Shown: in pieces, positions 7,953 to 41,875 of the stretch
Numbering within the stretch: position 1 is the first letter of the stretch
How the letters are laid out: the number at the start of each line of letters is the position of its first letter
DNA from: a virus
Virus record (IMG/VR): IMGVR_UViG_3300046009_011120
Coordinates: 1 to 43,885 of that record
Reading direction: 5' to 3' (one strand)
Length of the DNA stretch: 43,885 nucleotides
Program-made: the position numbers and the translations under genes
Notes under the pieces: generated by a model
The model's input: the letters and a program-made list of their open reading frames with translations, nothing else
Database searches by the model: none
What the model was told of the DNA's origin: nothing

Positions 7953-8148
7953 ATTCAAAAAGGGCGATAAGGTTATATACACAGGCAAGGATGTAAAATA
8001 CCCAATTGTTTTGTATTTTGACAGTGCGGACTATAACGTTGAAATGAATCGTTGGGACTATTACCTTAAATTGTCACCAAAAGAAAAGCTAACAGGGTAT
8101 GTTGGAACAGACTCTAACGTTATGCTATTTGATATGAAGCCAGCCTAA
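7921..8148 (+). CDS. Hypothetical protein (75 aa)
   Basis: ATGATG at 7921/7924 inside the preceding gene gives two possible starts. The product contains RFKKGDKVIYTGKDVKYPIV, an SH3/KOW-like beta pattern. Its stop codon lies in the loop of a terminator hairpin. Confidence 0.65.
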   Translation: MMTKLQSQLSRFKKGDKVIYTGKDVKYPIVLYFDSADYNVEMNRWDYYLKLSPKEKLTGYVGTDSNVMLFDMKPA

Positions 8149-31063: not shown

Positions 31064-32857
31064 ATGCGAATTGAAGATATTATTATTTCTAATCTAATTT
31101 ACAATGAAGAGTTTACTAGAAAAACCTTACCATTCATCAAAAAAGAATATTTTTCTGACAGAATGGAGTCTATTCTAGTCAACGAAATTGGTGACTACTT
31201 TAACAAGTTCAATAAGATTATTACGCCGCAAATTCTTGATATTGAAATCAGAAACAGAACTGACATAAATGATAAAGAATTAACTGATTTAACGGCGCTT
31301 GTATCTAAAATTGAAAATACAGATATTAATGATGAATGGTTGTTACTTGAAACTGAAAAATTCTGTAAGGATAAAGCAGTTTATGGTGCTATATTACATT
31401 CCATTAAGATTATTGAGGGGAAGGATAAACAGTTCCGTGAAGACGCTATTCCTTCCATTTTATCTGAAGCATTAGCGATATCTTTTGATACAAATGTTGG
31501 TCATGATTATATTTTGGATTATTCTGAACGATACGACCATTACCATAATGTTGAAACTAAGATACCGTTTGATTTAGAGCTAATGAATAAAATTACCGGC
31601 GGCGGGTTAAGTCTTAAAACCTTAAACTGTTTCTTAGCAGGTTGCGTTCACCCTGATACGCCTGTTGAAGTTAAAATTACCAGTAAGCAAGGTTGGGTTG
31701 CTGAAAAGCATATTGTCATCGGTGACGTTAAAGAGTTGCTATTAGATTATAAAATCGAGGTAACATCTCCAGATGGCTGGGTTAACGTATCGAATTTTGT
31801 TAATAAAGGATTTTGGGATGAGTATGTCCTTACGTTAGCTAATGGTGATACAGTTAGATGTAATGAAATTCATTTGTTTGAAACCAGAACTGGCTGGCAG
31901 TATGCTAAAGATATCGTAGATCTTACCTTAGAATTCCTTACACCAAATGGTTGGGTTAGCGGTTATGTCGTAGATACTGGTGAGTTGATTCCTATCGTTG
32001 ATATTACGGTTGACCATGATAATCATAGGTACTATACGAATGGTGTTTCTTCTCATAACACAGGTGTTGGTAAATCGTTAGCGATGTGTCATATTGCGGC
32101 GGCTACTATGGCTCAGGGTAAAAATGTTCTATACATTACGATGGAAATGTCTGAAGAACGTATCGCTGAACGTATTGATGCTAATTTACTGAATATCCCT
32201 ATCACAGAGTTGAAAACTGTTGAACGACCTGTATTTGAAACTAGAATTCAAAGGTTGATGGAAAAGACTACGGGTAAGCTAATCATTAAAGAGTATCCTA
32301 CGTCATCAGCTCATGCCGGTCATTTTAGAGTTTTGCTTGAGGAGTTAAAGGGTAAAAAGAACTTCAAGCCTGACCTTATCTGTATTGACTATTTGAATAT
32401 CTGTGCTTCGCAAAGAATGAAGTACGGTAGCGGCGTTAATTCTTATATGCTGATTAAGTCTATCGCTGAGGAGTTGCGCGGGTTAGCGGTTGAATACAAT
32501 GTGCCTGTTGTTACCGCGACTCAGCCTAATCGTGAGGGGCAAACTTCTACGGATATGGATTTGACCAATGTAAGTGAGTCTATCGGTATTGCCCATACGT
32601 TAGATTTATTCATAGGCTTAATGTCTACTGAAGAGTTGGAAGAAATGGGTCAGATTATGGTTAAGCAGTTGAAAAATAGATACAATGACATTTCTTATTA
32701 TAAGCGGTTCACTATCGGTATAGATAGAAGTAAGATGAGATTGTTTGACGTTGAAAGCTCCGCCCAGCATAATATATCAGGTGCCGGCACCGTTGATACT
32801 AATAACGGCTTTCAATCTAAAACTAAGAAAATTGAAACAAATGGCTTCAAATTTTAG
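31064..32857 (+). CDS. 41: gp41-like DnaB-family replicative helicase precursor with intein (598 aa)
   Basis: A hexameric 5'-3' helicase of the replisome. Residues 1-165 are the N-terminal collar, then the RecA-like motor. The Walker A is split: LAG (191-193) is followed by an intein (194-332) and then TGVGKS (333-338). After splicing the sequence reads AGTGVGKS, a proper P-loop. Downstream motifs include NVLYITMEMSEERIAERI (H1a), LICIDYLNI (Walker B) and VVTATQPNREG (H3). The spliced length, 459 residues, matches T4 gp41 (475). ATG 31064 follows TAATAGGATTGAT; an upstream start would overlap the previous gene. Confidence 0.93.
   Translation: MRIEDIIISNLIYNEEFTRKTLPFIKKEYFSDRMESILVNEIGDYFNKFNKIITPQILDIEIRNRTDINDKELTDLTALVSKIENTDINDEWLLLETEKFCKDKAVYGAILHSIKIIEGKDKQFREDAIPSILSEALAISFDTNVGHDYILDYSERYDHYHNVETKIPFDLELMNKITGGGLSLKTLNCFLAGCVHPDTPVEVKITSKQGWVAEKHIVIGDVKELLLDYKIEVTSPDGWVNVSNFVNKGFWDEYVLTLANGDTVRCNEIHLFETRTGWQYAKDIVDLTLEFLTPNGWVSGYVVDTGELIPIVDITVDHDNHRYYTNGVSSHNTGVGKSLAMCHIAAATMAQGKNVLYITMEMSEERIAERIDANLLNIPITELKTVERPVFETRIQRLMEKTTGKLIIKEYPTSSAHAGHFRVLLEELKGKKNFKPDLICIDYLNICASQRMKYGSGVNSYMLIKSIAEELRGLAVEYNVPVVTATQPNREGQTSTDMDLTNVSESIGIAHTLDLFIGLMSTEELEEMGQIMVKQLKNRYNDISYYKRFTIGIDRSKMRLFDVESSAQHNISGAGTVDTNNGFQSKTKKIETNGFKF
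31643..32059 (+). other. Mini-intein in the helicase P-loop (139 aa, no homing endonuclease)
   Basis: Intein landmarks are all present: Cys1 with block A CVHPDTPVEVK; block B ANGDTVRCNEIHLFET with the catalytic His (the usual TxxH Thr is Asn here, NEIH); block F IPIVDITVDHDNHRYYTNGV; and the C-terminal His-Asn pair (331-332) followed by Thr as +1 nucleophile. No endonuclease blocks or insertion fit in 139 residues, so it is a mini-intein. Without splicing the ATPase cannot form its P-loop. Confidence 0.93.
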
Positions 32858-32923: not shown

Positions 32924-34330
32924 ATGGTTAATGTTATTGTTGCTAAATCTAAATTAGATTGTGAGCACCTATTAGGTAGATTTCTTGATGAATCTCATTT
33001 TGATATTTTGGTTCAAGAAGATACCGACTGTTACATGCCTGCTGTGTGTGATTTATCAACTCAAGTAGATTGTCAGTCAGAATGTAATACATGCGATAAA
33101 GGTCAAGATGAACTTCGTATAGCCTTTAAGTTTAGAAAAAACTTTTTCTCTAAACAAGAGCACGACTGGGCGTATGAAGGATTAAGAGATGCTGCTACAT
33201 TATCTAATAACAGAGGTCTTGCCGCTGGTACTTTTCAGGATACAGGTAATGTTGATGGGGTGTTTAGCGATAACTCTGGTCGTATTAGGGTTAAGCCTAA
33301 AGAACATGCTATTCTTGATTATTTCATTAATCCTATCGATGATTTGTATAACGAAGGTGATGAGTTTGACAAAATCAAAAATGCTCATTATGTTGATAAC
33401 GAAATTCGTTGTCAGGTTTGGTTACCTTCTAAATTGCCTGAAGGGTTTAACTTTGATGAGTGGGCAGAAGCAACTTCTAAGTTACCTCGCGACGCGGCTA
33501 AAGCTGAAGCTGAAATGGTTGCTAAAGAGTTTATCTCTAGTACAAACTATGCCGTTCCATGTAATTCTGGTGTAGCGGGTTGGTTTGACAGATATCCTAG
33601 AATACCTTATGGTCGCCCAACATCATATACGAATTATCAGTTCCAAAAGTTTTCTAAATGTTTCCCTTTTATTCAATCGTTGAATAACGGCTTTAAAACC
33701 TTATTGCCATGGCGCTGGGGTAATCAAAAAGCGGCGGCTGATAAAATTGATGAAAAGTTTTTGGTTCCAGGCACGGTGTTTACTACGTTAACAGTGAATA
33801 ATACCTTTAGAACTGCGGCTCATTACGATGCTGGCGATTTAAATGACGGCTTATCTAATTTGCTAGTGTTATCTGTTAATGATAACTATTCAGGTGGCTA
33901 TCTAGTATTTCCAGAATACAGAGTAGCGGTTAACGTTAGACCTCTTGATTTATTGTTGGTTAATAATCATGAAGTTATGCATGGTAATACGCCTATCTTT
34001 AAACATGATGAATTGGCTGAGCGTGTTTCTATTATTTGTTACTTCAGAGAAAATATGCTAAATTTAGGTTCATATGATTACGAAGATTGCCGGTTCAATT
34101 TTGTTGAATCGAGAAAAAATGACCCAGACCATAAAGACCAACGGTTTAGATGGAACGGTATTACTCCAGGAATGTGGGCTGACCATGAATCTAAAGAAGG
34201 CGATTATTCTAAGGCTAAAGAATGGTACGACTATCTTAAAAAACAGCCTAATGGTGATGAGTGGTTAGATAAGTATCACCCTTGGCTTAAAAACGCCTAT
34301 GAAAGTACATCACTAGAGGAATTCTTTTAA
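32924..34330 (+). CDS. TET/JBP-family 2-oxoglutarate/Fe(II) dioxygenase (468 aa)
   Basis: It should hydroxylate the methyl group of thymine or 5-methylcytosine in DNA using Fe(II), O2 and 2-oxoglutarate. The double-stranded beta-helix core is at about 285-380: H300-x-D302 (AHYDAGDLNDG), then GGYLVFPEYRVAVNVRPLDL, the distal H353 (EVMHGNTPI) and R367 (ERVSIICYFRENM) for 2-oxoglutarate. The GRPTSYT segment near 230 and the LVFPEY-VAV-RP-D run are typical of phage TET/JBP proteins. A Cys-rich patch (C47-C57) in the ~200-residue N-terminal region is unexplained. It overlaps the glycosyltransferase gene by one base. Confidence 0.82.
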   Translation: MVNVIVAKSKLDCEHLLGRFLDESHFDILVQEDTDCYMPAVCDLSTQVDCQSECNTCDKGQDELRIAFKFRKNFFSKQEHDWAYEGLRDAATLSNNRGLAAGTFQDTGNVDGVFSDNSGRIRVKPKEHAILDYFINPIDDLYNEGDEFDKIKNAHYVDNEIRCQVWLPSKLPEGFNFDEWAEATSKLPRDAAKAEAEMVAKEFISSTNYAVPCNSGVAGWFDRYPRIPYGRPTSYTNYQFQKFSKCFPFIQSLNNGFKTLLPWRWGNQKAAADKIDEKFLVPGTVFTTLTVNNTFRTAAHYDAGDLNDGLSNLLVLSVNDNYSGGYLVFPEYRVAVNVRPLDLLLVNNHEVMHGNTPIFKHDELAERVSIICYFRENMLNLGSYDYEDCRFNFVESRKNDPDHKDQRFRWNGITPGMWADHESKEGDYSKAKEWYDYLKKQPNGDEWLDKYHPWLKNAYESTSLEEFF

Positions 34331-35469
34331 TGAAAGTTTTGAACGTACATTCTTCTCCGTTTGGTATATTTTCAAAAACGGGATCGTTTATGGGCGGGAT
34401 AGAAAAGGTTGTAGTTGATACACATAATTTATTAAGGTCAACGTTTGACATTAAAAGTTTTTGTTCTGTTTCTGATAATTTGGAGGGTGATGAATGGATT
34501 CCCATTCTACCCTCTGAGGGTTTAGAATATTGGACTAAAAATAAAAAACAGTTGTATCAAGATATTATTCAAAAAATAAAGTCTGAATCTCCTGATGTTA
34601 TTATTAATCACGGTTCAGAAAAAATACTGAAATTATCAAATTCTCTTGGGATACCGTCATTATTTATTGACCATAGATCTAATCAGCTTCATAAACTATA
34701 TCATGAAGGATTTTTTACAAACTTAGCGTTCAAAACTCAAGAAATAGGCGGTAAGGTTTACGCCGTATCTAACTATTCAAAAAACTGTAAAGAACTTGAG
34801 ATTAAAAAGTTATGGGATTCTGAATTTAAATTTGATGGGTGGATAAACTTTCAGTATGTTGAATCTGTCGATTCGTTAATTGAAACACCTAACAAAAAAT
34901 GTGTTACAATTGGTAGACCAGAAGATAATAAATCTCCACATCGTATTGAAACTTTTAGAAAAAAATTCAACATAGAATATAACCTAGTAACTTCTATTCC
35001 GGATAACCCTAAAAAGGATACAAAAAAATATTTTACAGAAAGATTAGAAAGCAATCAAAATATTGTTGATAGGATGCACTTAAATATTTCTAGAGAAAAA
35101 ACTTTAGAAATATTAAAGCAATCCAGTTTGTATTATTCAACATCTGCTATTGAATCGGCGGGTATAACCGCATTTGAGAGTTTCAGCTATGGTGTTCCTG
35201 TTATACTTCACGCACCCACCGGTATACATGCTTCTACAATGTATATGCCAAATGGTAAAGGTACTGCCTGGGAATACTATACCACAAAAAATATTGACGA
35301 AATTAGGGCGTTTATTGATAAATGTATAAATTACACATATGACGATCGGCTAAGTATTCAAAATGAATTAGTAAAAAATAATTCAAAGGAAGTTGCTCTA
35401 AATAATTTAAGTGATATTATTAGATCTATACATCCTGTTGCTGTACATAATCTTGAGGAGTTTATGTGA
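34330..35469 (+). CDS. GT4-like (GT-B) glycosyltransferase (379 aa)
   Basis: It probably moves a sugar from a nucleotide donor to hydroxymethylated DNA or another acceptor. The N-terminus has a GT-B glycine turn (SFMGGIEKVVVDTHNLL, about 17-34). The C-terminal donor site has the GT4 E-x7-E pattern in SAIESAGITAFESFSYGVPV (about 275-294), followed by a Pro-Gly turn region. It overlaps the dioxygenase stop by one base and the next gene by four, so it belongs to the modification operon. Confidence 0.75.
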   Translation: MKVLNVHSSPFGIFSKTGSFMGGIEKVVVDTHNLLRSTFDIKSFCSVSDNLEGDEWIPILPSEGLEYWTKNKKQLYQDIIQKIKSESPDVIINHGSEKILKLSNSLGIPSLFIDHRSNQLHKLYHEGFFTNLAFKTQEIGGKVYAVSNYSKNCKELEIKKLWDSEFKFDGWINFQYVESVDSLIETPNKKCVTIGRPEDNKSPHRIETFRKKFNIEYNLVTSIPDNPKKDTKKYFTERLESNQNIVDRMHLNISREKTLEILKQSSLYYSTSAIESAGITAFESFSYGVPVILHAPTGIHASTMYMPNGKGTAWEYYTTKNIDEIRAFIDKCINYTYDDRLSIQNELVKNNSKEVALNNLSDIIRSIHPVAVHNLEEFM

Positions 35470-36638
35470 AATATATACATAAAGATGAAAAAAATAAACC
35501 ATATGTTGATTGGCGAGAACCTGAATTCAGGATAGAAGGATTTTTACGATGGTTAAAATGGAGAATGCGTTGGGGTGATTTAGACCATTATGTTTGTAAC
35601 AACGCATATAGAGATGCTACCGGTATAATGTCGCCTACTGGTTTACCAATGACTAAAGAGCAACAATATTGGTTTTCTTTAATATTTGGTATGACGTATC
35701 AGTCTGAAATGGCATGGGTTATTTACTGGAATTTTCCTAATTTTTGGGATATTGACTTTGATAAACTTACAGAGTGGAATCTTAGCAATATGGAAATCCA
35801 AAAATATGCTAAAGATACAAAATACAATAAAGGAAGAATTGTAGAGCAAGTTAAATCATTGAGAGAAATCATAGCGCCTTACGGTACTATTGAAAATTTT
35901 TTCAATAACGATTTAAGTGGAGATCCTAGTAAAGATTTTTATCTTACATTTAATAAGTGTTTATCTTTCTATAAATATGGTAGAATGACAGCATGGATAA
36001 CTTGTCAAACACTATTCGAAACGGCTGGCTTATATATTAAACCAGAATCTGTATTAGCTACCGATCCTTCTTGTTGGTCTGTGCGAAAAGGGTTATTATA
36101 TTTGTACAATAAGGTTGATGATGCATACGAAGATACCGCTAAATTAACTGAAGAAGAAATTATATGGATCAAAGAAAAAGAAAAAGAGTTGTACGATTTA
36201 TCGCTAAATTATATTGATGATGATAATCGTGAAATATTTTCTAATTTTTTGTTAGAATCTCATTTATGCCAGTATAAAAAATTGGTATTAGGCGGGGATT
36301 ATGCTGGACACAGTAGTGGTGATCATGTTTCTAGGGCGTTATGGCTAAAAGAAAGATGGGAACATGTTAATTTTGATGCGTTTTTTACTATAGCGGTTAA
36401 AAGTCATTCTCCGTTAGTCTCTGGTAACAGGGAATCTAAACCATTAAGAGATTTGTGTAAATTAACCGGTCAGATGATTAACTTACATGAAGATTTTGAT
36501 GATATGCCAAATATGTATAATGAATTAGATATTGACCCAAGTTGGTTAAAAACTTCTGATTTTGATAAAATTATACTTAAAAAGATTGATGATTATATCA
36601 ATCAATCTTATGATGTATTTGATGAGTTTTTTGTTTAA
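35466..36638 (+). CDS. aGPT-PPlase-like (amino acid:DNA transferase clade) protein (390 aa)
   Basis: An all-helical, Trp-rich protein. FLRWLKWRMRWGDLDHYVCN near residues 27-46 and FGMTYQSEMAWVIYWNFP near 74-91, together with GGDYAGHSSGDHVSRAL (about 278-294), are as I recall the alpha-glutamyl/putrescinyl-thymine pyrophosphorylase clade, which displaces (pyro)phosphate from activated 5-hydroxymethyl bases and attaches an amine or amino acid. The identification rests on recall of the family plus context (dioxygenase, kinase and glycosyltransferases beside it). It overlaps the glycosyltransferase by four bases. Confidence 0.6.
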   Translation: MKYIHKDEKNKPYVDWREPEFRIEGFLRWLKWRMRWGDLDHYVCNNAYRDATGIMSPTGLPMTKEQQYWFSLIFGMTYQSEMAWVIYWNFPNFWDIDFDKLTEWNLSNMEIQKYAKDTKYNKGRIVEQVKSLREIIAPYGTIENFFNNDLSGDPSKDFYLTFNKCLSFYKYGRMTAWITCQTLFETAGLYIKPESVLATDPSCWSVRKGLLYLYNKVDDAYEDTAKLTEEEIIWIKEKEKELYDLSLNYIDDDNREIFSNFLLESHLCQYKKLVLGGDYAGHSSGDHVSRALWLKERWEHVNFDAFFTIAVKSHSPLVSGNRESKPLRDLCKLTGQMINLHEDFDDMPNMYNELDIDPSWLKTSDFDKIILKKIDDYINQSYDVFDEFFV

Positions 36639-36737: not shown

Positions 36738-37334
36738 CTATAAAACAACTGATACATGCATCGAAATAATCATTAATTTACAATTGTCAAAATGATATCG
36801 TTTCATATTATTTGCACCTCCAGTCTTACCACAATGTGGGCATGTAATTTGTGGATGTGGTTTACGTTTTGGACTTTGTGATTTAGGCTTACGCAGGTTA
36901 GCTTTATGTTCTTCTGACTTAGGTTTACGCAGTTTGGCTTTAGTTTCTTCTGTAAGGCGTTTATTTTTATGTGAATCAGACATTTTGGCTTTGGTTTCAT
37001 CTGTACATTTTCTGTCTTTCACACTTCCACCATGTAGCCCATTTTCTGGTATTTGATTTGCCCATTCTTTAGATTTGACGATATCGTTATCAGCAGAAAA
37101 CTGTAAGGCAATCTCGATGATAGATGTGTCATAGTATAGATCCGAAACCCATAAAGTTACGATATGTTCTTTACCGTGTTTATTAATGTGTTTGAGCCAA
37201 TATGTGCCAGATCCATTGTATGTGTATGGATTTGTTTTTGTAGTTTTACCAAAATATTTCTTTTTGGTGATGGAGTGTTGTTTGATGTACAGATAGGTGG
37301 GTGTGATGGGAGTATAAATACTTGTGCTGGTCAT
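36738..37334 (-). CDS. GIY-YIG homing endonuclease (198 aa)
   Basis: The GIY-YIG fold is recognisable at residues 14-50: YLYIKQHSITKKKYFGKTTK then YNGSGTYWLKHINKHG, with E (IIEIALQF) following. The middle is a NUMOD3-type repeat region (TDETKAKMSDSHKNKRLTEE, KAKLRKPKSEEHKANLRKPK) and the end a zinc finger (CPHCGKTGG...HFDNC). These match the Seg-type free-standing homing endonucleases of T4-like phages. It lies opposite to all flanking genes between the aGPT-PPlase-like and inositol-synthase genes, as expected for an invader. RBS AAAGGATCT precedes ATG. Confidence 0.85.
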   Translation of the reverse strand: MTSTSIYTPITPTYLYIKQHSITKKKYFGKTTKTNPYTYNGSGTYWLKHINKHGKEHIVTLWVSDLYYDTSIIEIALQFSADNDIVKSKEWANQIPENGLHGGSVKDRKCTDETKAKMSDSHKNKRLTEETKAKLRKPKSEEHKANLRKPKSQSPKRKPHPQITCPHCGKTGGANNMKRYHFDNCKLMIISMHVSVVL

Positions 37335-37483: not shown

Positions 37484-38761
37484 ATGTCAAAAATACGAGT
37501 AGCATTGGTAGGTATCGGTTCTTGCGCTAAATCTTTAGTGGAAGGTGTTCAATATTACATAGAAAATCAAAACGATACAGTCGGTTTAATGTATCCAGAT
37601 ATCGGCGGTTATACCGTTAACAATATTGAATTTGTGTGTGGGTTTGATGTTGATATCCGCAAAGTTAACCTACCATTAAAAGAAGCATTAAGAGCAAATC
37701 CAAATTGCTCTATGGATCATGTATTAGAAATATCAGATGCATGTGTACCAAAGGGCGCTATCGTTTATTCTGGACCAGAGTTAGATGGTGTTGCTCCTCA
37801 TATGTTAGACTACCCAGAAAACGTTTCCTTTAGAACCGGCGCTATTCCAGCAGAATCTTTTCAACGTGTCGTTGAATTGTTAAAATACCATAAAGTTGAC
37901 GTTGTAGTCAACTATCTTCCAGTAGGTTCACATGAAGCAAGTAAATTCTATATTGATGCAGCAGTTCAAGCTGGGTGCCATTTTGTTAACTGTATCCCTA
38001 CATTCATTTCTACGGAAGAAGCTCAGATTGTCGAGCAAAAATTCATAGACGCGGGGTTAACTATTGTTGGTTCTGATATGCGTTCTGGTTTCGGTGCGTC
38101 ACGTTTATCTGAAATATTACAGGGTGGAATGCTTGACGCTGGGTTATTAGTTACCCAACATATCCAAATGAATATGGCGGCAGGTACAACTCAGGGACAA
38201 GAAAATATCCGTACCGGTAGAACGGCTAACACAGACTTCTTGAATATGGCTAAAACTGACCGATTAGAGTCTAAACATATTTCTAAAGAAAATGTTCTGA
38301 AAGGTCAAAATAGTGTAAGAAACACATCTATCGATGGTATGACTTTATATGCCGGACCATCGCTAACGGTTATTCAAAAACCAGGAGGAACTTATGTTGG
38401 TTCTGATAATAAAATAGCCAATATTGATATTGTAGCTTACGGGTTTGCCGGCGCTAGATATGAATTGACTGCTAGATTATCAGTTCAAGATTCTCCAAAC
38501 TCAGGTGCAGTTGTAGTGTCTGCTATTAGATTCTGTAAGGTGGCTTCAGAATTAGGTATCGTTGGGTTCTTACGCGGTGCTTCTCATATTACACAAAAAA
38601 CGCCGCCGGTTCAAATGAAAATTGAAGATGCTAAATTTGAGTGTGATGCGTTAGCAAGACGAATCATTACTCCTATGACTGAATCTCAATTAAAAGAAAA
38701 CAACCCGATCGCTAAAAAATTGCCGTACACATTTCAAAAGGCGGTTAACGACTATAACTAA
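37484..38761 (+). CDS. ino1: myo-Inositol-1-phosphate synthase (INO1-like, 425 aa)
   Basis: It converts glucose 6-phosphate to 1L-myo-inositol 1-phosphate through an NAD-dependent internal redox reaction. The NAD-binding Rossmann start is VALVGIGSCAKSLVEG (7-22); GLMYPDIGGY (34-43), GFDVD (53-57), and a conserved central part with SDMRSGFGASRLSEIL and HIQMNMAAGTTQGQENI follow; the C-terminal domain contains YGFAGARYELTARLSVQD. This is the shorter prokaryotic/archaeal type. Most Gammaproteobacteria do not make inositol, so a phage copy is striking and probably serves the surrounding DNA-modification genes. Confidence 0.9.
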   Translation: MSKIRVALVGIGSCAKSLVEGVQYYIENQNDTVGLMYPDIGGYTVNNIEFVCGFDVDIRKVNLPLKEALRANPNCSMDHVLEISDACVPKGAIVYSGPELDGVAPHMLDYPENVSFRTGAIPAESFQRVVELLKYHKVDVVVNYLPVGSHEASKFYIDAAVQAGCHFVNCIPTFISTEEAQIVEQKFIDAGLTIVGSDMRSGFGASRLSEILQGGMLDAGLLVTQHIQMNMAAGTTQGQENIRTGRTANTDFLNMAKTDRLESKHISKENVLKGQNSVRNTSIDGMTLYAGPSLTVIQKPGGTYVGSDNKIANIDIVAYGFAGARYELTARLSVQDSPNSGAVVVSAIRFCKVASELGIVGFLRGASHITQKTPPVQMKIEDAKFECDALARRIITPMTESQLKENNPIAKKLPYTFQKAVNDYN

Positions 38762-40110: not shown

Positions 40111-40491
40111 ATGCAAATAAACACTTTTGATATTGATGGCGTTATTTATATGGGGAAAGGGTTACGCGGCGTTCGTCCTGACCCAGATGATATTATTATA
40201 ACCGGTAGATCTATAGAAGAAGCAAAAGCAACGCTAACTATGTTGTATCAGCAAGGTATTTTTAACCAAGTGTTCTTTAATCCTATTAAGTATAATGAAA
40301 AGACACGTGCCAGTTCCGGCTTACATAAAGCTAGAACGATAGAAATGCTGATAGAGTCTGGGTATGATATTATGTTCCATTTTGAGGACGACCCGATTCA
40401 AATTGAATTGATAAAAAAATACTGTAAGAAAGTGCATGTTATTGCTATTGATTCCCCTACTGAAAAAGAAAACGTGAGAGCTGAATTATGA
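40111..40491 (+). CDS. HAD-like small phosphatase-related protein (126 aa)
   Basis: It begins MQINTFDIDGVIYMGKG, a HAD motif I (DIDG, 7-10), then IIITGRSIEEAKATL (motif II-like Thr-Gly-Arg) and FHFEDDPIQIELI (motif IV, DD). The small cap-free form resembles the phosphatase half of polynucleotide kinase/phosphatase-type or trehalose-phosphatase-like proteins. In this island it could dephosphorylate inositol phosphate or an activated base. It overlaps the kinase by four bases. Confidence 0.65.
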   Translation: MQINTFDIDGVIYMGKGLRGVRPDPDDIIITGRSIEEAKATLTMLYQQGIFNQVFFNPIKYNEKTRASSGLHKARTIEMLIESGYDIMFHFEDDPIQIELIKKYCKKVHVIAIDSPTEKENVRAEL

Positions 40492-41033
40492 GAAAAATTA
40501 TTGCGGTCTGCGGTGTGCCTGGAACGGGTAAAACTACTTTGTTCCGTGAGTTTATGAAGAATCATACATGGGAACGACGCGAAGAAGCTAAACTGGTTTC
40601 TTCAGAATATTCTAAGGATTTGAATTTACATATCCTAGGCAAATACGATGAGGGTGAAGTATTCGCAGGAACAGACAAGTTGAGTCTTGCTGTCCAACCT
40701 GAATTTATAAAATGGTTAGAATCTTCAGATACAAATGTTTTATGGGAGGGAGATAGGTTAACTAGCGCAAAACTTTTTGAATTCTGCGCTAATATGAAAG
40801 GTGTAGATTTTGAAATTATAGTCTTAAAATGCCCTGATGAAACTTTAAAAGAAAGATATGGTGAGCGCGGTTCTGAACAATCAGAAACGTTTTTAGCTGG
40901 TAGGTACACTAAGATATCTAATATTGAATCTAATTTTGATTTGATGCCAAACGTAACAGTCTATAAAAATTCGTCTAAAGAAGAACAAGCTGTACTTTTA
41001 AGTAAATTAAATTCTTCCTTTGTTAATCTATAA
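40488..41033 (+). CDS. P-loop kinase, 5-hydroxymethyl-dU DNA kinase-like (181 aa)
   Basis: Walker A GVPGTGKTT (9-17) lies at the N-terminus. The following HILGKYDEGEVFAGTDKLSL and AVQPEFIKWL (about 48-80) are characteristic of the phage kinases that phosphorylate 5-hydroxymethyl-dU in DNA, the activating step before hypermodification. LWEGDRLTSAKLF and a C-terminal LKERYGERGSEQ complete the fold. It is ATGA-coupled to the HAD-like gene. Its last 73 bases overlap the convergent homing endonuclease gene. Confidence 0.75.
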   Translation: MRKIIAVCGVPGTGKTTLFREFMKNHTWERREEAKLVSSEYSKDLNLHILGKYDEGEVFAGTDKLSLAVQPEFIKWLESSDTNVLWEGDRLTSAKLFEFCANMKGVDFEIIVLKCPDETLKERYGERGSEQSETFLAGRYTKISNIESNFDLMPNVTVYKNSSKEEQAVLLSKLNSSFVNL

Positions 41034-41875
41034 AAATCTGGCTTATTGGGATTAGCAAGCGCTTTTCCTACGTTTATTTTTATGTTATTGTTTTTATACC
41101 ATAAACCGGCTGCTGAAATTGATTCAAATACCATACCTTGACAATAGACCGGTTTTTTTGACGCATCAATTGCAACGTTTATACTGTAGTCAATTTGTTC
41201 CTTTGTGCGACGCTTATTTGCTTCAGCAACAGCTTTTTTCTGTTTATCTGATGTAGGTATTCCTAACCTAGCAACTCTTGACTTTTCTATATGTTCTTTT
41301 GTCTGCGTTTTTCCTTTATTGGGACTTGGTTTTTGTACCCAAGTCCCATTTAGCACATTTGGGTCATTTTTATCTACTCTACCCAAATATTCTCCAGTTT
41401 TAGCGTCTAATGCTAATATTTTACCCAATAATGCTTCTTTACGTTTTATTTTAACACTTTCTTTTTTTGATGGATTATTTTCTGTCATTTGTTTAGAAGT
41501 GCGAATAGAATTATCTAATTTTAATTTTTCATAAATTTTTGAATTTATACGGGTGTAATTTCTATTTTGATTTGAAGAACCAGCATTATTCATTTTCACA
41601 AATCCTTTTATTTGGCTTCCACCATACGCTTTCCATAATATCCAATGTAACAAATAATGCTGTCTAGCTGTGACTATCAATTTATTCCACGTAAACATTT
41701 TTAAATTTGCATATTCAGGAAAAAGATCTTTTGCTTTAGGGCAAATATGGTGGTTTTCTGTGTAAACAAAATCATCAATTTTCTGCGTTTTAAGTGATTC
41801 AACTAAAGTGTAGTATCTATTGATGTAGTGTTGTGAATGTGGCTTTGACTGTAAAACCGCTAAAATATCTATCAT
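40961..41875 (-). CDS. HNH homing endonuclease with NUMOD-type tail (304 aa)
   Basis: The HNH site is near residues 38-90: YTENHHICPKAKDLFPEYAN, then LIVTARQHYLLHWILWKAYG, like T4-type HNH endonucleases. A basic linker with NUMOD3-like repeats (KKESVKIKRKEALLGK, TKEHIEKSRVARLGIPTSDK) follows, and a NUMOD1-like DNA-binding segment (KPVYCQGMVFESISAAGLWY) lies near 240-260. It is convergent with, and overlaps, the kinase gene by 73 bp, so its insertion probably remodelled the kinase C-terminus. No early promoter precedes it on the minus strand. Confidence 0.82.
   Translation of the reverse strand: MIDILAVLQSKPHSQHYINRYYTLVESLKTQKIDDFVYTENHHICPKAKDLFPEYANLKMFTWNKLIVTARQHYLLHWILWKAYGGSQIKGFVKMNNAGSSNQNRNYTRINSKIYEKLKLDNSIRTSKQMTENNPSKKESVKIKRKEALLGKILALDAKTGEYLGRVDKNDPNVLNGTWVQKPSPNKGKTQTKEHIEKSRVARLGIPTSDKQKKAVAEANKRRTKEQIDYSINVAIDASKKPVYCQGMVFESISAAGLWYKNNNIKINVGKALANPNKPDFYRLTKEEFNLLKSTACSSLDEFL

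What the first reader, a model, noticed from the sequence alone, without database searches (positions are those of the whole stretch)
31643..32059. Mini-intein splitting the Walker A loop of the replicative helicase
The 139-residue insert has Cys1, block B His, block F and His-Asn/Thr ends, and removing it restores AGTGVGKS. It has no endonuclease. Block B has Asn where Thr is usual (NEIH). Placement in the P-loop makes helicase activity, and so replication, strictly dependent on splicing; it could act as a conditional switch (redox via Cys1, temperature). Two free-standing homing endonucleases lie within 10 kb and might once have mobilised such elements.
Basis: partly seen in the sequence, partly recalled or inferred. 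Interest (0 to 1): 0.75.

Follow-up and report, generated by a model that had tools for sequence, protein, structure and literature searches.

The report
Fused cousin of a split intein
A phage DNA helicase gene carries, inside its ATP-binding loop, a small self-removing protein segment (an intein); in most related phages that have it the segment is broken into two genes with a DNA-cutting enzyme gene in the break, and several relatives, probably including this one, look as if the two halves were joined again.

Summary
Window 31643-32059 (139 codons) is an in-frame insert in a T4 gp41-like helicase (31064-32857). It splits AG|TGVGKS and has Cys1, NEIH, a block F and His-Asn/Thr ends. All 69 empty-site loci examined have the uninterrupted loop. 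The insert is predicted with high confidence to fold as an intein; the closest solved structure is VidaL (TM 0.89, 1.5 A), a naturally split intein.

New context: 133 distinct IMG/VR sequences hold this intein family at the same site. 103 are split after about 16-18 residues, 15 are contiguous, 15 lack the N half on the contig. Of 90 breaks over 150 nt, 88 carry one HNH homing-endonuclease family. Contiguous members are scattered among split ones (one clade rejected, p 7e-8). In one pair the contiguous intein equals the split one minus stop codon, HNH gene and start codon (50/50 and 371/376 nt), although exteins are only about 76-80% identical. So split inteins here appear to be re-fused repeatedly. 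The window clade is probably re-fused too, but no fossil shows it.

Asn in block B is the family norm. Dependence of ATP binding on splicing is well inferred; a redox or temperature switch is not shown. New variant of a known kind.

The parts
31064..31642 (+). N-extein of gp41-like helicase (residues 1-193), ending in LAG
   Evidence: phrog_19
31637..31642 (+). first two codons (Ala-Gly) of the interrupted Walker A loop AG|TGVGKS
31643..32059 (+). contiguous mini-intein, 139 residues, Cys1 to Asn139
31688..31702 (+). linker (intein residues 16-20) at the place where 103 relatives are broken into two genes; no stop, no in-frame start codon, no endonuclease here
31862..31873 (+). block B codons Asn-Glu-Ile-His (intein residues 74-77)
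32060..32077 (+). rest of Walker A, Thr-Gly-Val-Gly-Lys-Ser; Thr is the +1 splicing residue
32060..32857 (+). C-extein of the helicase with stop codon (DnaB_C domain)
36738..37334 (-). free-standing GIY-YIG-like homing endonuclease (phrog_314); possible, unproven partner
40961..41875 (-). free-standing HNH homing endonuclease (phrog_655), same PHROG family as the break endonucleases of relatives; link unproven

Best explanation
It is a cis-splicing, class-1 mini-intein in the Walker A loop of a T4 gp41-like phage helicase. After translation Cys1, the block B and F histidines, His138, Asn139 and Thr+1 should carry out standard splicing, joining LAG to TGVGKS; only then can the helicase bind ATP (inferred from motifs, fold and relatives; splicing itself is not shown). 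It belongs to an intein family, close to the solved VidaL intein, that in most phages carrying it at this site is naturally split after about 16-18 residues, with an HNH homing endonuclease gene in the break. That two-piece cassette moves between phages. When the HNH gene is deleted the halves can stay apart or be fused in frame, and the family shows this more than once. The window intein is most likely such a re-fused, now immobile form, kept because its loss would have to be precise (this last part about 0.6).
For: Intein: no insert in 69 of 69 empty-site loci; Thr+1 and SHN in 133 of 133, Cys1 in 117 of 118, the exception L317 being a mis-set junction; model pLDDT 96.4; VidaL TM 0.89, rmsd 1.5, Z 21.1. 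Purifying selection: window against L082, intein dN 0.087, dS 0.85. Family: of 133 distinct members 103 split, 15 contiguous, 15 with N half not found; HNH family in 88 of 90 breaks over 150 nt. Mobility: of 162 pairs with C-parts at least 93% identical, 22 have C-exteins under 80% identical, lowest 41%. Re-fusion: contiguous members not one clade (AU p 7e-8); 11 state changes; L256 equals 50 nt of the split N part (50/50) plus 376 nt of the split C part of L269 (371/376), exteins 76-80% identical, stop TGA replaced by TGG and ATG lost. Remnants of the HNH region in short-gap loci such as L006 and L147.
Against: No splicing assay. For the window clade (window, L082, L100, L101) there is no near split sister and no fossil in the linker; the nearest split rows lie at tree path 1.2 to 1.4, and its sister by extein tree, L305, is contiguous too, so an old contiguous state in this lineage is possible. 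Deep forks of the C-part tree are weak (116-117 columns), and recombination inside the intein occurs, which can inflate counts of state changes. The distant outgroup L095 is contiguous.
Confidence: 0.85

Rival explanations
1. The window lineage kept an old contiguous intein; only other lineages were split, by insertion of HNH genes at one preferred spot, several times.
For: Window clade and its extein sister L305 are all contiguous; outgroup L095 is contiguous; break genes differ in kind and strand (80 antisense HNH, 8 sense HNH, one GIY-YIG-like, one other), which would fit repeated insertion; a model without contiguous-to-split change is 2.7 log units worse than the full one without the outgroup and 15.8 worse rooted on L095.
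Against: A model without re-fusion is 17.4 log units worse at its best root; contiguous members sit among split ones; the break is at one place in nearly all members; short-gap loci keep HNH remnants.
Confidence: 0.35
2. The intein is a conditional switch: splicing waits for a redox, temperature or DNA cue and so times phage replication.
For: P-loop inteins of M. smegmatis DnaB respond to oxidants and P. horikoshii RadA precursor lacks ATPase (PMC6195587 passages; PMC8529194 passages). The window intein has a second cysteine, Cys73, next to NEIH; the same position is Cys in 82 of 133 members.
Against: 46 of 133 members have Val there; sporadic presence and horizontal spread look like a mobile element, not a regulator; VidaL is described as fast (PMC13014065 passage); no assay.
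Confidence: 0.12
3. The segment is a dead intein or an ordinary inserted domain that stays in the helicase.
For: No splicing assay; standard HMMs barely see an intein.
Against: All motif residues kept; dN/dS about 0.1; empty sites; it would leave the phage's helicase without a Walker A loop.
Confidence: 0.03

Closest known systems
VidaL atypically split intein (PDB 6vgv)
   Same: Fold TM 0.89, rmsd 1.5, Z 21.1; sequence E 1.3e-11. VidaL is broken after beta strand 2 with a 16-residue N part (PMC13014065, passages), the place where relatives of the window intein are broken.
   Different: The window intein is one chain. VidaL is nearer (51%) to the P-loop intein of the UvsX-like protein of Salicola phage SCTP-2 than to this helicase intein (27-28%).
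gp41-1 split intein (PDB 6qaz, 6riz)
   Same: Named after the same host gene family; intein fold (Z 19.0).
   Different: Broken near the C end (88 + 37 residues, Ser+1; PMC11766414, passage); recalled to sit at another place in gp41.
Fractured genes with split inteins and free-standing endonucleases (Dassa et al. 2009, recalled; paper not held)
   Same: Relatives of the window have N half, endonuclease gene and C half in a row.
   Different: The endonuclease in the break is HNH (phrog_655) here; recalled as another family there. The window gene itself is not fractured.
Mycobacterial DnaBi1 P-loop mini-intein (PDB 6bs8)
   Same: Endonuclease-free intein in the Walker A loop of a replicative helicase (PMC6195587, passages).
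   Different: DnaBi1 is class 3 with the P-loop serine as +1; here Cys1 and Thr+1, earlier in the loop; only fold-level similarity (Z 17.4, 21% identity).

Membership tests
Intein (HINT protein-splicing domain) | HINT fold | tested here: met
   pLDDT 96.4; top structural matches are inteins
Intein (HINT protein-splicing domain) | Nucleophile at position 1, His-Asn end, Cys/Ser/Thr at +1 | tested here: met
   C...HN|T; conserved in the family
Intein (HINT protein-splicing domain) | Block B histidine | tested here: met
   His77 invariant in 42 aligned members; Asn instead of Thr at residue 74 is the family norm
Intein (HINT protein-splicing domain) | Removal restores the host protein; insert absent from relatives | tested here: met
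   69 of 69 empty-site loci without a junction gap
Intein (HINT protein-splicing domain) | Self-excision and ligation | not testable with these tools
   needs expression
Class 1 intein | Cys or Ser at position 1 acts first (recalled definition) | tested here: met
   Cys1 present; chemistry not tested
Mini-intein | No endonuclease domain | tested here: met
   139 aa, no Pfam family in the insert, whole length aligns to splicing domains
VidaL-type atypically split intein | Nearest by sequence and fold | tested here: met
VidaL-type atypically split intein | Two separate polypeptides with a short N part | tested here: not met
   one open frame in the window; met by 103 relatives at the same site. 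So it is a contiguous relative, not a split intein
Fractured-gene cassette | Endonuclease gene between the halves | tested here: not met
   absent in the window; HNH family in 88 of 90 long breaks of relatives
Conditional (regulated) intein | Splicing rate changes with a cue | not testable with these tools
   no assay

The most novel reading that the evidence does not exclude
Being split is a reversible state of the intein at this helicase site: an HNH gene in the break keeps the two halves apart and mobile, and after its loss the halves are fused again in frame. This has happened several times independently, and the window's mini-intein is a product of such a re-fusion, opposite to the usual view that splitting is one-way.
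Probability: 0.6. Interest if true: 0.7.

Novelty: new variant of a known kind. Interest (0 to 1): 0.57.

Why it matters
Split inteins are widely used ligation tools, and passages read here say they are believed to come from contiguous inteins. This site gives natural matched sets: near-identical inteins that are split with HNH, split without it, or contiguous. They allow direct tests of what splitting costs and gains, supply ready contiguous/split pairs of a VidaL-like type, and show a homing endonuclease moving a two-piece intein through distant phages. For the helicase, placement in Walker A means an unspliced precursor should be unable to bind ATP.

Tried and rejected
Ordinary insertion domain: rejected by empty sites and by split relatives. 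Standard HMM evidence alone: too weak (Pfam none in the insert, NCBIfam below cut-off). Members in bacterial or archaeal genomes: 10 pattern matches, none confirmed. Members at this site among 50,697 named phage records: none recognised in the rows listed (40 of 309 and 30 of 251 records shown; best hits were a UvsX-like protein, UvsX and terminases). I did not inspect the unlisted rows, nor separately the 16 records that cover 80% or more of the helicase query (60 of 2587 records listed). Source of the roughly 20 nt of filler in the L122 linker: no 14-base match outside L122 and its copies among the loci held. The window's own endonucleases as relocated break endonucleases: only weak similarity, though same PHROG families. 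TATTTATA, reverse complement of the T4 late promoter consensus (recalled), lies within 80 nt upstream of the C-half start in 69 of 90 long-break loci against 0 of 90 random gap stretches, but TATAAATA is not enriched in the window (6 against 9.7 expected), so its role is left open. Model fits gave very high rates because near-identical rows differ in state; I use only the ranking of models. A structure of the whole precursor was not run.

Full report
Observation. The insert at 31643-32059 is as described: 139 codons, in frame, residues 194-332 of a 597-residue helicase read from ATG 31064. The host protein matches phrog_19, DnaB-like replicative helicase, at E 9e-117; gp41 proteins of cyanophages cover it in two pieces, about 77% of the query in all, best listed 58% identical (Synechococcus phage DSL-LC02). 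In 69 of 69 intein-free loci that align through the site there is no gap at the junction, and 63 read ALAGTGVGKSLF. The insert therefore interrupts Walker A between AG and TGVGKS.

What it is. By sequence the best solved relative is VidaL (E 1.3e-11), then gp41-1. AlphaFold2 on an alignment of 42 family members gives mean pLDDT 96.4. Foldseek ranks VidaL first (TM 0.89, rmsd 1.5; the next inteins TM about 0.7 to 0.75), and VIA-align gives VidaL Z 21.1 against 19.0 for gp41-1. In the family Thr+1 and the SHN end are found in 133 of 133 members, Cys1 in 117 of 118 with an N part (the exception, L317, is a mis-set junction), and NxxH in 130 of 133. Asn in block B is thus the family norm. The frame is under purifying selection: against L082 the intein has dN 0.087 and dS 0.85, the N-extein 0.025 and 0.54, the C-extein 0.004 and 0.60.

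The site in other phages. Scans of IMG/VR with the helicase, the intein and four alignments (best 80 per scan kept, 301 relatives reported) gave 256 intein-bearing locus rows, 135 distinct. Two of these (L095, L096) are a distant helicase with the intein two codons further along the P-loop. Of the remaining 133, 103 are split, 15 contiguous, and 15 have no N part found on the contig. The break follows residue 16, 17 or 18 in 86 of 103, which in the window model lies near the turn between strands 7-13 and 19-25, the S1 position described for VidaL (PMC13014065, passages). Of 90 breaks longer than 150 nt, 88 match a profile of one HNH family, 80 antisense and 8 sense; L199 holds a GIY-YIG-like phrog_314 protein and L009 another protein. 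In these fractured genes Walker A could be rebuilt only by trans-splicing.

Mobility. Among 162 pairs with C-parts at least 93% identical, 22 have C-exteins under 80% identical, down to 41% (for example L163 and L166: 99% against 47%). The extein tree and the intein tree disagree accordingly. In the window clade there is no endonuclease in the gene, but segments inside the intein are exchanged: L082 and L100 are 94-96% identical over the 3' half of the intein while exteins and the intein 5' part are at 64-87%; L100 and L101 are 98-100% identical upstream and in the first part of the intein yet 53-81% in its centre.

Re-fusion. Contiguous members do not form one clade (AU p 7e-8, log-likelihood 277 lower) and need 11 state changes on the C-part tree; well-supported branches force at least 6 in the full tree and 4 in the thinned one. 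A model without split-to-contiguous change is 17.4 log units worse at its best root without the outgroup; a model without contiguous-to-split change is 2.7 worse without the outgroup and 15.8 worse when rooted on the distant contiguous L095, so both directions may occur. The clearest case is L256/L270 against L250/L269. The contiguous 426-nt intein is the first 50 nt of the split N part (50/50) followed at once by 376 nt of the split C part (371/376 with L269); the stop TGA reads TGG, the start ATG is lost and the 638-nt gap with the HNH gene is gone. Their exteins are only 76-80% identical over 300 nt each side, so the change is recent relative to the hosts. L209 carries a related intein with the HNH gene gone but still split. 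L164, L169, L161 and L147 carry near-identical split inteins with gaps of 689, 372, 37 and 19 nt; in L161 the C-half frame itself is open further upstream, so its stop-to-Met distance is longer. L006 keeps sequence like both ends of the HNH region of its relative L286, a deletion remnant. L122 is contiguous beside split L109 but has about 20 nt of unexplained filler.

The window itself. Its clade (window, L082, L100, L101) is contiguous and well supported, and its sister by extein tree, L305, is contiguous too. No near split sister and no remnant was found, and the linker has no in-frame start codon. I therefore hold re-fusion for the window at about 0.6 and retention of an old contiguous state at about 0.35.

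Mechanism. From established intein chemistry (recalled): N-S acyl shift at Cys1, transfer to Thr+1, Asn139 cyclisation, ligation of LAG to TGVGKS. Shown here: motifs, predicted fold, empty sites, selection. Not shown: splicing. That a P-loop intein blocks ATPase activity before splicing is reported for P. horikoshii RadA and assumed for mycobacterial DnaBi1 (PMC6195587, passages; PMC8529194, passages). Regulation remains an idea only.

Literature. [quoted passage not shown] Other papers were seen as search listings, or as passages on VidaL and atypical splits (PMC11766414, PMC13014065, PMC10189870). Ten searches listed no paper that I recognised as describing re-fusion of split inteins or this helicase site. 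The library lacks key subscription papers that I recall (Dassa 2009, Thiel 2014, Neugebauer 2017, Burton 2020), so absence from print is not established.

Noticed in passing
window 36738-37334 (-) and 40961-41875 (-): Free-standing homing endonucleases of phrog_314 and phrog_655, the same two PHROG families that occupy the intein break in relatives. A 66% relative of the first lies a few kb from the helicase in L083.
   Followed up: partly
window 35466-36638 (+): Amino acid:DNA transferase (Pfam ADDT, E 2e-13), suggesting hypermodified phage DNA; a P-loop kinase-like protein lies at 40488-41033 and a glycosyltransferase-like one at 34330-35469.
   Followed up: no
window 37484-38761 (+): Protein with a myo-inositol-1-phosphate synthase domain match (E 2.8e-8) in a phage.
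   Followed up: no
L002 from about 7558: What looks like the N part of a second, split intein in the same helicase, after TSTSE, ending GDLLKSC-stop; the C-extein match resumes at 8091.
   Followed up: no
L326 (Salicola phage SCTP-2, gene 204): RecA/UvsX-like protein annotated as hypothetical seems to carry two contiguous inteins, one in its P-loop and 51% identical to VidaL.
   Followed up: partly
L095 6001-6414: Contiguous intein in a helicase of a 327-kb viral contig, placed two codons further along the P-loop (GGSG|TGKS), 37% identical to the window intein.
   Followed up: partly
split loci, upstream of the C-half start: TATTTATA within 80 nt upstream in 69 of 90 long-break loci against 0 of 90 random gap stretches; reverse complement of the recalled T4 late promoter, perhaps serving the antisense HNH gene.
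   Followed up: partly
L100 and L101 intein centres: Mosaic exchange inside the intein: centre 53-81% identical where the upstream flank is 98-100%.
   Followed up: partly
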